A stretch of 64,000 nucleotides of DNA from Alkalibacillus almallahensis (lineage in GTDB: Bacteria; Bacillota; Bacilli; Bacillales; Alkalibacillaceae), in assembly GCF_011761495.1 (NCBI RefSeq), contig NZ_JAASRU010000002.1:1-64000 (forward strand), written 5' to 3'. Under the pieces are notes generated by a model. The model had not been told where the DNA came from and ran no database searches. It saw only the letters and a list, made by a program, of their open reading frames with translations. This document shows positions 9,878 to 47,495 of this stretch, piece after piece. Every line of letters begins with the position of its first letter. Within the stretch, counting starts at the first letter, position 1. The translations under genes and the position numbers were made by a program.

Positions 9878-9901
9878 TGTTTAGTCATCATTCTTATAGA
9901 A

Positions 9902-9931
9902 AAATCCCACTGAATTGAGTCAGTGGGATTT
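9902..9931 (-). terminator. Terminator of the PBP gene
   Basis: A perfect 12-bp stem (9902-9913 with 9920-9931) with a 6-base loop. Read on the minus strand it ends in a T-run, so it stops the PBP transcript just before the acuA promoter. Confidence 0.85.
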
Positions 9932-9949
9932 GAATAATTTAGGGTTGAT

Positions 9950-12900
9950 TTAGTTTGAACTGTCACCGGAACCGTCGGTGGAACCATCGTCAGAACCACC
10001 ATCGGAACCGTCGGTGGAACCATCGTCAGAACCACCACCGGAACCGCCGTTGGAACCATCGTCAGAACCACCACCGGAACCGCCGCTGGAACCATCGTCA
10101 GAACCACCACCGGAACCGCCGCTGGAACCATCGTCAGAACCACCACCGGAACCGCCGTTAGAACCATCGTCAGAACCACCATCGGAACCGTCGGTGGAAC
10201 CATCGTCAGAACCACCACCGGAACCGCCGTTGGAACCATCGTCAGAACCACCATCGGAACCGTCGGTGGAACCATCGTCAGAACCACCACCGGAACCGCC
10301 GCTGGAACCATCGTCAGAACCACCATCGGAACCGCCACTGGAACCATCGTCAGATCCTTCACTGGAGTCATTATTATCTCCTGATCCAGAATCTCCTTCA
10401 GAACCAGACTCTTCACTTTCTTCTTCCTCTTCTTCAAGTGAACCATAAATTACTGATTCAGATAGGTTTGATTCATGGCCATACAGACTTACAGCTCTCA
10501 CTGCATAGACAGAATCACTTGATGGAAGAGAAATTTCTGTTGACGTTGTATTTCCAATTTCACTAAATGAGCTATCTTCATCTGCAGCACGGTAAACTCT
10601 ATAACCAACAACTTGACCGTCTGCTCCAGACCAATTAAGTGTACCGCCTGAAATAGATACATTGGATGGTGCGCTAGGTGCGCCTTCATCATCTAATTCG
10701 TCTTCAACGTTGACCAAGTCTGGGATATCACCATCCTCGATGATTTGGTCCATATCAACTGGGTCAGACCAACCAGAACCAACTCGATAAGTTGTGCCCC
10801 AGCCAAATTCATCGATAAAGTCGTTTTCCATTGTAAAGCCTTCTTCGGTAAATTCACTAGGTGTTGCATCAACAGCTGGATAACGATCGCCATCTATTTC
10901 GACATAGTCACTAGTTGAGAAGATGTCGTTATCGCTTGAAGACGGTGCATAGTCAGTGTTAAATAGATCAGTACTAACTAAACCGAGTTCAGCGCACATA
11001 TCACTTGGGGCGTTACCTGTTAATCCACAGTAACTGCGTGAAACAATGCCCCCAGGACTTGAAAAGCTTTCACTTGGTGTTACAAGGTCAGAATTTATCT
11101 CAGCAGAAGAATTAACGAGTTCCGACCAAAACTGTAGGTTACGTCTACTATACTGATCATGGTTTAGCTCTAGAGCAGATGGATTTACGGCTTCATCATG
11201 ATTGTAATACCCCATCCATGTTCCGACTGTGACATTTGGGTTAGTACCTACAAACCAAGCATCTTTATAGTCTCCAGATGTACCTGTTTTACCAGCCCAG
11301 TCAACACCAGGATTATTCAATGTGTAATTTAAGGATGCTGCCGTACCATTGTTGACGACATCACGCATCATATCGATCGTTAAATAAGCAGTTTGAGGCG
11401 AGAAGACTTCCTCAGATTCGGATTCATGTTCATAAATAATATTGCCTTCATCATCTTCAATGCGCTCAACCATGTACGGACTCTTATGGTTACCTTGATT
11501 AGCGAAAGTCGTATAAGCAGAGACATTTTCTTCAATGGTCATAGGAGGTGATGGACCTAGAACGTTTGATGGAACGTTTTGTCCACCATCAATCCCCATT
11601 TTGTCTAAAAATCGTTTTGGATTACCATCTTCTTCGATGATGTCAATCATCAAACGGGAAGCAGGGATGTTATCGGAATCCCGCAATGCTTCTCTTGCGC
11701 TAACAAATCCACCCGTATCATAGGAAATATAGTTACTTGGTGACCATGGTTCGCCAGGGTAGTAGTCAAATTTAACATTTAAAAGAGGTGATCCAGGTTG
11801 AATAATACCTAATTCCATTCCGACTGCATAACCAAACAACGGTTTCATCGTACTACCAGGAGGTCGAATATTATAGGTTGCATTATTGACTTGGCGTCTG
11901 TCGAAATCTCGACCACCCACAAAACTTAAAATGGCACCTGAACTATTCTCAATCATCATCGCGCCAGCTTCAACAGGAATTTCTTTTTGTGTTATTTCAC
12001 CTGTATCAGGATTTTCTACTTGAACGGTTTTTGTTCTACCGTAATTGTCAAACTTATTCTTTCTAACTTGCCATTCGTCATAAATATCTTTCTTAATGGT
12101 TGTATGCACTTTTAGTCCGCTATGACGCAATTCATTCATGGCTAAATCACGGTAATGCTGACGTGTTGAGTCAACATTATTATATTCTTCTAATTCACCT
12201 TGTTCTTCAGCTAATTGTTCAGCTAAGACGTCGCGTGCACGTCTTTGAACTTCATCTGCAATAAACGGATAATCGTCGCGAATCGATTCTGTTTTTTGTG
12301 TGAAATCAGAGACAATGTCGTAATTTAAAGCCTCTTCATATTCTTGATCACTAATTTTCCCAGCGTCATGCATACGTTCCAGAACTGATTCCATTCGGTT
12401 TAAACCAGGTTGTAGTTGTTCTTCTGGTTTAAGTTCACCACCATTAGCATATGGTGTATAAACATATGGATTTTGTGGTAAACCAGCGATATAGGCAGCT
12501 TGAGGGATATTCAATTCTTCAGCATTTACATCAAAGATTCCTTGAGCTGCTGCTTGAATACCAGCAATATTACGCCCGGTTGAGTCTCGCCCAAATGGCA
12601 CGACATTTAGATAAGCTTCTAATATATTTTCCTTATCAATAAATTGTTCTAAGCGTAAAGAAATAAATATTTCCTCAGCCTTACGTTCGAATGATACTTC
12701 ATTAGACAAGATTTGGTTTTTAACGAGCTGCTGGGTCAATGTACTACCACCAGTTTGAGTAGGTGTTCCAGCAAATTGTTGGTATAGGGCACGCATGATG
12801 GCCTTTGGTACAATACCTTCGTGCTCATAGAAATTCTCGTCTTCAGTAGCAATCACAGCGTCTATGAAAGTTTGTGAGACTTGATCACTACTAATTTGTT

Positions 12901-13316: not shown

Positions 13317-13334
13317 GATCAAATAAAAATAACA

Positions 13335-13552
13335 AGCGACGAATAGTTGAAGTAAGGACATAATGATGGTGTTACAGAGAGCTGATGGGTGGTGCAAATC
13401 AGTACACACTATGGACTGAATTACGGCTAGGAGCTTTTCTCGATTATGAGACGGTTAGTCCCGTTAACGAAAGAAGTGGTGTCTTGTATTTGAAGACACA
13501 AATAGGGTGGTAACGCGAGCCTCTCGTCCCTAAGCGGATGAGGGGCTTTTTT
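13335..13552 (+). ncRNA. T-box riboswitch (tRNA-Tyr) upstream of tyrS
   Basis: A T-box leader that senses uncharged tRNA-Tyr. The T-box core AGGGTGGTAACGCG is at 13504-13517, one base from the usual consensus. Its UGGU bulge is complementary to the ACCA end of a tRNA with discriminator A, as in tRNA-Tyr. A likely tyrosine specifier UAC lies at 13422-13424 in the stem I region. An intrinsic terminator (13519-13529 with 13536-13546, then six T) competes with the antiterminator that contains the T-box. This 369-base gap before tyrS holds no gene. Confidence 0.92.
13519..13552 (+). terminator. T-box-controlled terminator before tyrS
   Basis: An 11-bp stem including two G-T pairs, a 6-base loop and six T. 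Its 5' arm overlaps the T-box side of the antiterminator, so folding is mutually exclusive. Confidence 0.88.
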
Positions 13553-28225: not shown

Positions 28226-28259
28226 AAGAGGTAGTTACTTAGATGTAACTACCTCTTTT
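28226..28259 (+). terminator. Terminator of the SASP gene
   Basis: A 13-bp stem (28226-28238 with 28245-28257), 6-base loop, ending in four T. Confidence 0.9.
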
Positions 28260-28363
28260 CTATAGAATGAATGAAAGCAAAAATAATTTGCGCTAGGACA
28301 GGTGTTTTCGGTAAAGTATAAGTAGCAATATTTTAATGCGTTAATATGAAGGAGAAAAGCGAA

Positions 28364-36794: not shown

Positions 36795-36901
36795 CTCTAA
36801 AAATTATAGTCTTTATGTGTTATCTTAACGGATAAAGGGTAATAAATGAATGGTGAAGTAATAATTTTAATTAAAATCAAAAAACATAGGAGGCATAACA
36901 T

Positions 36902-37582
36902 ATGAAAGTAAGTTATCATGGTCATTCTGTTGTAAAGGTTGTAACAGACGAGCACACCATTTTAATCGATCCATTTATTTCTGGAAATGACAATTGTGAT
37001 TTAAACGCTGAAGGTCTAAAAGCTGATGTAATTTTACTAACACATGGTCACAATGATCACGTTGGTGACACAGAACAAATTGCCAAAGAAAATGATGCAC
37101 AAATTGTTGCACCGTTTGAATTGGCAACTTATCTCGGGAATAAAGGGTTAAATGCGCACCCAATGCATATTGGTGGCGGTCATGAATTTGACTTCGGATA
37201 TGTGAAATTAACACAAGCTTTCCATGGCTCTGCTTATACAGAAGAAGATGGCACCATTGTTTATACGGGAATGCCAGCTGGTTTATTATTAACGATTGAT
37301 GGAAAAACAATCTATCATGCTGGTGATACAGGATTATTCTCAGACATGAAGTTAATTGGTGAGTTTAATGATATTGATTTAGCATTCTTACCAATTGGAG
37401 ATAACTTTACAATGGGACCTGATGATGCACGATTAGCTGCTGAATGGATTAATGCAGCTCGTGTTGTACCTGTTCACTACAATACATTCCCATTAATTAA
37501 TCAAGATGGAGAAGCATTTGCGAACTCCTTACCACAAAACGTTGGTTATGTCATGAAACCAGGCGACGCATTAGACTTATAA
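36902..37582 (+). CDS. ytkL: YtkL, UPF0173 metallo-beta-lactamase-fold hydrolase
   Basis: A 226-residue metal-dependent hydrolase of the UPF0173 family. The binding motif is [11 protein letters not shown] (HxHxDH). Further ligands are [18 protein letters not shown] and VPVHYNTFP. The substrate is not known. AGGAGG lies before the ATG. It ends at its own terminator and is followed by the GC-rich repeat element. Confidence 0.93.
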
Positions 37583-37591
37583 AGAAATGGT

Positions 37592-37622
37592 AAGCAGTCG
37601 ATTAGATATCGGCTGCTTTTTT
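37592..37622 (+). terminator. Terminator of ytkL
   Basis: An 11-bp stem with one G-T pair (37592-37602 with 37608-37618), 5-base loop, then T-run. Confidence 0.88.
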
Positions 37623-37672
37623 ATATTTGTTATTTTAAAATTTATTGTTGTTTATAGCAGGTTCAGTACTTA

Positions 37673-37818
37673 GTTGTTGAATTGTGAGGAGCGAAGGTGG
37701 CGACTCCTGTGGGAATAGCACGAGTCTCGAGACCCCGCAGGAAGCGCTTTTTTTCCGAGGAGGCTCGAGCCGTGCCCACGGAAAGCGTCCACCGAAAGCG
37801 GATCACAATATCAACAAC
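37673..37818. repeat. Copy A of a structured 146-bp intergenic repeat
   Basis: This fills most of the 333-base gap before ytoI. Ends GTTGTTGA-ATTGTGA (37673-37687) and TCACAAT-a-TCAACAAC (37803-37818) pair almost perfectly. Nested pairings follow: 37696-37700 with 37789-37793, 37707-37712 with 37776-37781, 37718-37722 with 37771-37775, CTCGAG 37726-37731 with 37764-37769, and 37740-37743 with 37753-37756. It is much richer in GC than its surroundings and holds two 10-bp palindromes (37724-37733, 37762-37771). A second copy is at 47253-47397; similarity continues about 20 bases past the right end. Confidence 0.92.
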
Positions 37819-37852
37819 GAACTTTAACAGAGCATATAGTTGGTACCCTTAA

Positions 37853-46607: not shown

Positions 46608-47207
46608 ATGTCTAATCCATCAAAAATGAAAGTTTATCAAGAAGTTTTAAATGAAATTAGGCGTTTTATTCAAGAACGCGAATTAGAAGATGGAGATCGA
46701 ATTCCTTCTGAACGAGAGTTATCAGATCAATTAAATGCTAGTCGGGCATCTGTTCGTGAAGCTTTACGCGCGATTGAATTATTAGGGTTAATTGAAACTC
46801 GTCACGGTGAAGGTACATTTTTACGCACTTACAAACCTTTTCACTCTGTGGAATTGTTATCAACCTTTGTTTTAACTGAAGCACAAACCAAAGATGAGTT
46901 AAAAGAAGTGCAATATATGCTTGAACAATTATGCTTACAAGAGTTGAAGCGACTGAATGTAAGAGAAATTGAGGAATTAGAATCACTTGATGGTGCAAGT
47001 GAACAAATCCATAATGAGTTGTTTATTCTATTGTTTAATCAACTGGGGAATCAATTACTATTGAAGATATGGCATCTTGTAGCTGGCTTTCAACAAATGA
47101 CGGAACAAGAGCAGCTTGATGCTTCTGATGTTCAGTCTATAATTGACCGAATTAAACGCCAAGAATATGACCAAGCAATCGATACCCATTCGAGATTGTA
47201 TACTTAA
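46608..47207 (+). CDS. GntR/FadR-family transcriptional regulator
   Basis: A 199-residue regulator. The N-terminal winged helix reads GDRIPSERELSDQLNASRAS and VREALRAIELLGLIETRHGE. The C-terminal FCD-like domain is short and helical; its metal-site histidines are not obvious. It sits between the malic enzyme gene and accD, where it may control fatty-acid precursor or malate genes; no target site was identified. The ATG at 46608, with GAGGTG 6 bases before it, is preferred over the GTG three codons earlier. The copy B repeat element follows. Confidence 0.82.
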   Translation: MSNPSKMKVYQEVLNEIRRFIQERELEDGDRIPSERELSDQLNASRASVREALRAIELLGLIETRHGEGTFLRTYKPFHSVELLSTFVLTEAQTKDELKEVQYMLEQLCLQELKRLNVREIEELESLDGASEQIHNELFILLFNQLGNQLLLKIWHLVAGFQQMTEQEQLDASDVQSIIDRIKRQEYDQAIDTHSRLYT

Positions 47208-47252
47208 ATTCTGTTAGAGTTTGATGTTATTATTCGATTTAGTTATTACTAA

Positions 47253-47397
47253 GTTGTTGAATTGTGAGAAGCGAAGGTGGCGACTCCTGCGGAAACAGCA
47301 CGAGTCTCGAGACCCCGCAGGCCGCGTTTTTGGCCGAGGAGGCTCGAGCCGTGCCCGCGGAAAGCGTCCACCGAAAGCGGATCACAATATCAACAAC
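47253..47397. repeat. Copy B of the structured intergenic repeat
   Basis: A 145-bp element between the FadR-type gene and accD, about 88 percent alike to the one at 37673 by eye. The same inverted ends (GTTGTTGA... and ...TCAACAAC) and two 10-bp palindromes (47304-47313 and 47341-47350) are kept. Where it differs within stems the change is compensated: C47290-G47357 replaces T37710-A37778, and CC/GG at 47322-47323 and 47332-47333 replaces AA/TT. False open frames cross it. Apart from it this gap has no gene. Confidence 0.92.
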
Positions 47398-47495
47398 GGA
47401 CTTTATCAAAGCTTATACTTAATATAAATTATGACAGTTTTTGCATGATAGAGAACGTATGATGTGATTGAGTGATTGGTGAAGGAGGAATCGGC

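What the first reader, a model, noticed from the sequence alone, without database searches (positions are those of the whole stretch)
37673..37818. GC-rich intergenic element with inverted ends and compensatory changes, copy A
Two elements of about 146 bp, 9.6 kb apart, share ends that pair (GTTGTTGA-ATTGTGA with TCACAAT-TCAACAAC) and a nested series of helices to a T-rich apical loop. In stems, the copies differ in ways that keep pairing: T37710-A37778 here is C-G in the other copy, and AA/TT (37742-37743 with 37753-37754) is CC/GG there. Three pair-preserving double changes in so few differences argue for selection on a fold, in RNA or cruciform DNA. I recall similar strings between genes of other Bacillaceae, but know of no described function. 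It could be a miniature mobile element, a small RNA or a nucleoid or termination element.
Basis: partly seen in the sequence, partly recalled or inferred. Interest (0 to 1): 0.82.

Follow-up and report, generated by a model that had tools for sequence, protein, structure and literature searches.

The report
Hairpin-cored mobile repeat across Bacillales
The two 146-base hairpins belong to a mobile DNA repeat with at least 79 recognisable copies in this genome and a core found in about three quarters of sampled genomes of its bacterial order; the shape of its single-stranded fold is kept while its interior is reshuffled between copies, which suggests an undescribed RNA (or single-strand DNA) hidden in mobile elements.

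Summary
Copies A (37673-37818) and B (47253-47397) are the conserved cores of ~208-bp elements with IS1595-type terminal inverted repeats (GGCTCTGTTAAAG) and 8-bp AT-rich target duplications. A covariance model finds 79 matches in this genome, 229 of 299 genomes of the order, and none in the several hundred genomes sampled outside the class. Copy A is absent at the matching site of a close relative: a filled/empty pair. Over 85 order-wide cores, 96.2% of stem cells pair, and 44 of 49 pairs show double changes. G-T exceeds A-C mismatches 64:10, so one strand's fold is selected (RNA or ssDNA), which argues against a cruciform. At eight insertions shared by two close species, the six in the same orientation keep orthologous ends but have cores no more alike than random paralogues; linkage survives only between base-paired positions. 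Longer copies carry arms; all 34 Bacillaceae-1 RNA (RF01690) hits in this genome are such arms. The core has no Rfam family of its own, and the open-licence papers searched held no core string. Best reading: an IS1595-mobilised MITE whose interior is an undescribed, modular, exchanged structured module, probably RNA. The molecular partner is unknown.

The parts
37627..37672 (+). Copy A: left element end (degenerate IS1595-type TIR plus spacer)
   Evidence: In register with the consensus GGCTCTGTTAAAGTTTAGTGTTGATTTTCAAATGATGTAGCACTGA of 39 copies; 65% identity to consensus
37673..37818 (+). Copy A: 146-bp structured core
   Evidence: Covariance model R1, 178.4 bits; fold z -6.2
37710..37710 (+). 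Covarying position 38 (T), pairs with 37778 (position 106, A); r2 = 1.0 over 55 cores
37742..37743 (+). Covarying positions 70-71 (AA), pair with 37753-37754 (positions 81-82, TT); r2 = 1.0
37819..37834 (+). Copy A: right element end (IS1595-type TIR, GAACTTTAACAGAGCA)
47207..47252 (+). Copy B: left element end
   Evidence: L014 row
47253..47397 (+). Copy B: structured core (145 bp)
   Evidence: 174.2 bits with R1; fold z -7.7
47398..47413 (+). Copy B: right element end
36853..36925 (.). Empty site: relative G005 carries another copy here (L081 508-653), this genome does not
28253..28334 (.). Empty site: relative G005 carries a copy here (L152 2520-2665), this genome does not
37592..37618 (+). 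Terminator-like hairpin of the upstream gene, just left of copy A (context, not part of the element)

Best explanation
A non-autonomous transposable element of the MITE kind, moved in trans by an IS1595-family (ISXO2-like DDE) transposase that recognises its ends and makes 8-bp AT-rich target duplications (shown by ends, duplications and empty sites; the transposase acting on it is inferred). Its interior is an order-wide structured module whose single-stranded fold on one strand is under selection (shown by covariation and the G-T over A-C excess), most simply because it works as a folded RNA (inferred). The interior changes independently of the ends: copies at shared sites have interiors no more alike than unrelated copies, arms come and go, and only base-paired partners stay linked, so segments are exchanged between copies, most likely by frequent ectopic gene conversion with selection removing exchanges that break pairing (exchange shown, mechanism inferred). 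The optional arms include what Rfam calls Bacillaceae-1 RNA. I think the RNA serves the element's own spread or upkeep rather than neighbouring genes, because orientation to genes is near random; that last step is a guess.
For: Copies: 79 matches in this genome; 21 of 23 family genomes; 229 of 299 order genomes and 92 of 116 genera; in the phylum sample 4 of 398 genomes match, all in the class, and no listed match lies outside it. Ends: an intact IS1595-family transposon in a Pontibacillus plasmid has the same ends and the 8-bp duplication TTTCGAAT, with a DDE_Tnp_IS1595 domain at 50.9 bits against a cut-off of 27. Duplications: 6.6 of 8 matches versus 3.5 by chance, 92% AT. Mobility: G005 lacks copy A and has copies where this genome has none. 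Fold: 96.2% of cells paired, 44/49 pairs with double changes, 0/500 shuffles; G-T 64 versus A-C 10 (p 9e-11), and 40 versus 9 after removing similar rows (p 9e-6). Exchange: at six same-orientation shared sites the ends are 0.914 identical (0.769 in paralogues), while cores are 0.925 (0.924 in paralogues); arm gain or loss at shared sites; inner helix swapped with flanks kept in closed genomes G121/G268; linkage only between paired sites.
Against: No IS1595 transposase was found in this genome, so the mobiliser is inferred. No promoter was seen inside the core of copy A, and no transcript data were available. ssDNA hairpins also tolerate G-T better than A-C, so RNA is not proven; within the genus alone the bias is 12:4 (p 0.08). 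The exchange result rests mainly on one species pair with draft assemblies, plus two loci in closed genomes. In Bhargavaea the core is better conserved than its flanks and not exchanged. Two of the eight shared sites have the core in the opposite orientation, which may be independent insertions.
Confidence: 0.7

Rival explanations
1. Structure-dependent replacement: a hairpin-targeting transposase removes a target stem-loop and puts another in its place, as proposed for IS1272. Cores would then swap as hairpins, nest arms in hairpins and jump between unrelated MITE families.
For: Cores change while ends stay; the same inner core sits inside MITEs with different ends: GGCTCTGTTAAAG, GAGGCTGAGACAAAAG, TTTGTAGACAAA in Peribacillus, GGCTCTGTCA in G121/G268; nested arms; IS1272 precedent (PMC5678879).
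Against: No IS1182-type DDE transposase (PF13751) in six genus genomes. Linkage inside the core is lost over 6-10 nt, so whole-hairpin replacement alone does not fit; segments within the core are exchanged too.
Confidence: 0.15
2. Purifying selection alone: every copy is an old, useful RNA gene evolving in place, with compensatory changes and decaying transposon ends.
For: Core conserved while ends decay, with no correlation (r = -0.03); compensatory changes; the Bhargavaea orthologous core is better kept than its flanks.
Against: Orthologous cores in close relatives differ as much as paralogues, 60-120-bp arms come and go, and turnover of copies between close species is high.
Confidence: 0.08
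3. DNA-level hairpin biology without RNA: a strand-specific ssDNA hairpin recognised by a recombinase or HUH transposase, as with REP or attC-like hairpins, selects the fold.
For: Strand-specific mismatch bias is also expected for one ssDNA strand; no orientation bias to genes; variable apical hairpin and conserved inner boxes; inverted pairs in G121 and G268.
Against: 8-bp duplications and IS1595 ends point to a double-strand DDE route for insertion; no candidate recombinase was sought or found.
Confidence: 0.2
4. Ordinary quasi-palindrome correction: template switching in a selfish hairpin copies one arm onto the other, making paired changes without function.
For: Almost no one-sided intermediates at pairs 38-106, 70-82 and 71-81.
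Against: Does not predict the G-T over A-C bias or the order-wide conservation of unpaired strings such as GACTCC-GCGGGAA and GAGGAGGCT.
Confidence: 0.1

Closest known systems
IS1595-family MITEs and passenger-gene transposons
   Same: Terminal repeats GGCTCTGTTAAAG, 8-bp AT-rich duplications, no room for a transposase
   Different: Conserved structured interior shared across the order and across MITEs with other ends; interior exchanged independently of the ends
Bacillaceae-1 RNA, Rfam RF01690 (PMC2864571 lists it as 'RNA? Y', not cis-regulatory)
   Same: All 34 hits in this genome are arms inserted in this element
   Different: It is only an optional arm at two positions; copies A and B lack it, and the core itself has no Rfam family
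tsr24, S. aureus small RNA, Rfam RF02577
   Same: Weak match to the inner core (20.2 bits, E 0.013); one genome of the class outside the order also carries cores
   Different: Far below the gathering score of 50
bcr1-bcr18 repeats of the Bacillus cereus group (described in PMC6542083)
   Same: Abundant intergenic mobile repeats of similar length
   Different: bcr mobility is tied there to a TTTAT motif and the group is B. cereus specific; here 8-bp variable duplications and an order-wide spread
IS1272 stem-loop replacement (PMC5678879)
   Same: A hairpin at a fixed site is exchanged for another
   Different: IS1272 is an autonomous IS without target duplications; no IS1182-type transposase found in the genus
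Bhal-1 and Sta stem-loop repeat families (PMC2267715)
   Same: Intergenic stem-loop repeats of B. halodurans and S. aureus that may be fragments of this family
Pneumococcal BOX elements (own knowledge)
   Same: Modular, structured, intergenic, MITE-like
   Different: Different sequence and host; not compared here

Membership tests
IS1595-family MITE | Terminal repeats shared with an intact IS1595-family transposon | tested here: met
   Same ends in Pontibacillus transposon L074 with a DDE_Tnp_IS1595 transposase
IS1595-family MITE | 8-bp target-site duplication | tested here: met
   About 37 distinct elements, mean 6.6 of 8 versus 3.5 by chance
IS1595-family MITE | Mobility shown by empty sites | tested here: met
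   Copy A and others, G000 versus G005
IS1595-family MITE | Autonomous partner in the same genome | tested here: not met
   PF12762 absent; a partner may be lost or missing from the draft assembly
Bacillaceae-1 RNA (RF01690) | Copies A and B match the covariance model | tested here: not met
   No hit in the window
Bacillaceae-1 RNA (RF01690) | Longer copies of the same element contain it | tested here: met
   34 of 34 hits in this genome lie inside element copies
tsr24 (RF02577) | Score at or above the gathering cut-off | tested here: not met
   20.2 of 50 bits
IS1272-type stem-loop replacement | IS1182-family transposase present | tested here: not met
   PF13751 absent in six genus genomes
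bcr1-type repeats | TTTAT target motif and B. cereus group restriction | tested here: not met
   Variable 8-bp duplications, order-wide distribution; sequences not compared
REP/RAYT elements | GTAG-type tag and a nearby REP-associated tyrosine transposase | not tested
   -
Structured RNA | Covariation beyond shuffles and strand-specific wobble bias | tested here: met
Structured RNA | Transcript detected | not testable with these tools
   no RNA-seq available

The most novel reading that the evidence does not exclude
The core is a self-spreading structured module (RNA or ssDNA) that colonises unrelated MITE families across the order. It moves between them and is exchanged helix by helix in place by a structure-guided process that keeps paired arms together, with Bacillaceae-1 RNA as one of its detachable arms.
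Probability: 0.2. Interest if true: 0.87.

Novelty: new variant of a known kind. Interest (0 to 1): 0.68.

Why it matters
A repeat found in about three quarters of sampled genomes of a well studied order has no Rfam family of its own and, in the open-licence papers searched, no description of its core. It reinterprets a listed RNA family (Bacillaceae-1) as an arm of a mobile element, at least in this genome. It offers a natural test of how a fold can be kept while its sequence is reshuffled: paired sites stay in complete linkage although unpaired neighbours 6-10 nt away are in equilibrium. If the interior is a trans-acting RNA, it would be a large class of element-borne RNAs.

Tried and rejected
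Cruciform DNA as the selected form: disfavoured by the G-T/A-C asymmetry. Gene-linked cis-regulation or termination: orientation 17:12, with tandem, convergent and divergent sites all used. Decay-in-place of old copies: rejected by the shared-site comparison. Assembly error as the source of exchange: unlikely, because pairing is intact in nearly every copy and the same exchange appears in closed genomes, but not excluded for each locus. Phage or plasmid carriage: no phage-record match, one plasmid record, one viral contig. A paper search with core strings found nothing relevant; supplements could not be read. The ends of the second MITE family matched only one plasmid, with no transposase identified. 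An alternative pairing of CCTGCGGG with CCCGCAGG is possible by eye, but the G/A change at position 65 does not follow position 38, so I did not adopt it.

Full report
WHAT WAS CHECKED. Rfam gives no family for either copy; at a permissive threshold the only hit to copy A is a sub-threshold one to S. aureus tsr24.

WHAT IT IS PART OF. A DNA search of the window's own genome found about 40 copies before its scoring limit. A covariance model built from 41 cores finds 79 matches in this genome. Aligning copies with flanks shows that the 146-bp core is the inner part of a ~208-bp element: left end GGCTCTGTTAAAGTTTAGTGTTGATTTTCAAATGATGTAGCACTGA, core, right end GGACTTTAACAGAGCC. The same ends bound an intact transposon on a Pontibacillus plasmid that interrupts a glutamine synthetase gene, with the 8-bp duplication TTTCGAAT and a transposase with the DDE_Tnp_IS1595 domain. 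About 37 distinct elements show 8-bp AT-rich duplications. No such transposase was found in this genome.

MOBILITY. The close relative G005 (99% protein identity at the neighbouring gene; about 93% DNA identity in flanks) has no element at the copy A site. It has elements where this window has none, near 36.9 and 28.3 kb. Other relatives carry independent insertions or cores in the same intergenic region. G001 holds forms that range from bare ends (47 bp) and coreless ~100-bp elements to full cores and cores with an arm.

DISTRIBUTION. 21 of 23 family genomes, 229 of 299 order genomes from 92 of 116 genera. In a sample of 398 phylum genomes only four match: the own genome, two of the order and one of another order in the class. 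Named carriers include Peribacillus, Oceanobacillus, Psychrobacillus, Neobacillus, Heyndrickxia coagulans, Rossellomorea, Sporosarcina, Planococcus and Virgibacillus. The core sits inside elements with different ends: IS1595-like here, GAGGCTGAGACAAAAG in the same genome, TTTGTAGACAAA in Peribacillus, GGCTCTGTCA in G121/G268.

STRUCTURE AND STRAND. In 85 order-wide cores, 96.2% of stem cells pair and 44 of 49 pairs have double changes; no shuffle reaches these values, and sliding the partner by one column drops pairing to about 36%. Conserved strings are GACTCC(T/A)GCGGGAA, GAGACCCCGCAG, GAGGAGGCT and CCCGCGGAAAGC, while outer stems vary freely but pair. Where pairs fail to be Watson-Crick, G-T outnumbers A-C 64 to 10, and 40 to 9 after removing similar rows. 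Transitions make both equally often, and a G-T on one strand is an A-C on the other, so selection acts on the fold of this strand. RNA is the natural reading; one ssDNA strand is the alternative. The alignment was fitted to the model, but the bias also holds in the inner helices (36:5). In the independently made genus alignment it is 12:4 (p 0.08).

ARMS. Longer copies (about 200-471 bp) carry structured arms at fixed places. All 34 Bacillaceae-1 hits of this genome fall in such arms, forward at one site and reversed at a second, so their loops (GTCCT and AGGAC/AGGAT) are complementary. I note possible loop-loop pairing but did not test it.

EXCHANGE. Ends decay between copies (50-93% identity to consensus) while every core stays at 88-98%, uncorrelated. 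At eight sites shared with G005, ends and flanks are orthologous, but arms are gained or lost at several and the core orientation differs at two. For the six same-orientation pairs, ends are 0.914 identical against 0.769 for paralogues, while cores are 0.925 against 0.924. In closed genomes G121 and G268 two shared loci have a different inner helix, both arms changed together, with outer helix and flanks kept. Across 55 cores, r2 is 1.0 only between paired positions (and adjacent positions of the same helix), and near the sampling floor for nearly all others even 6-10 nt apart. Exchange in contiguous tracts with selection against broken pairs explains this; structure-guided exchange would too.

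HOW IT MOST LIKELY WORKS. Shown: mobile DNA with IS1595-type ends, one-strand fold under selection, modular arms, exchange between copies. Inferred: trans mobilisation by an IS1595 transposase, RNA as the selected form, ectopic gene conversion as the exchange route. Guessed: the RNA serves the element rather than neighbouring genes, because orientation relative to genes is near random (17:12) and all 39 copies scored are intergenic.

WHAT IT IS NOT. It is not tsr24 (score far below the cut-off), not Bacillaceae-1 itself (an arm only), not bcr1 by target motif or distribution, and no IS1182-type transposase supports an IS1272 mechanism. Earlier stem-loop surveys list B. halodurans and S. aureus families (PMC2267715) that may be fragments of it; their sequences could not be compared. 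The paper library holds open-licence papers only, so an earlier description elsewhere is possible.

Noticed in passing
window 13330-13534 (+): T-box leader, 126.5 bits (Rfam RF00230).
   Followed up: no
window 9885-10438: Long run of 12-bp-register direct repeats, probably a repetitive coding stretch.
   Followed up: no
L056 1738-2382 (G000 contig 6): A 645-bp element with the same IS1595-type ends but no core.
   Followed up: partly
L158-L165, L170: Second MITE family (GAGGCTGAGACAAAAG ends) with the same inner core and a terminator-like hairpin near one end.
   Followed up: partly
L347, L348, L353, L355, L371 (G121, G268): Cores occur as divergent inverted pairs a few hundred bp apart, without a common spacer.
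   Followed up: partly
L080-L087 intergenic region upstream of the 37916 gene: Several relatives carry independent cores in this one intergenic region; possible insertion hotspot.
   Followed up: partly
L229 versus L252 (Bhargavaea): An orthologous core nearly identical between species while its flanks differ more, the opposite of exchange.
   Followed up: partly
B. subtilis (control genome): Bacillaceae-1 RNA also hits B. subtilis; whether it lies in a core there was not checked.
   Followed up: no
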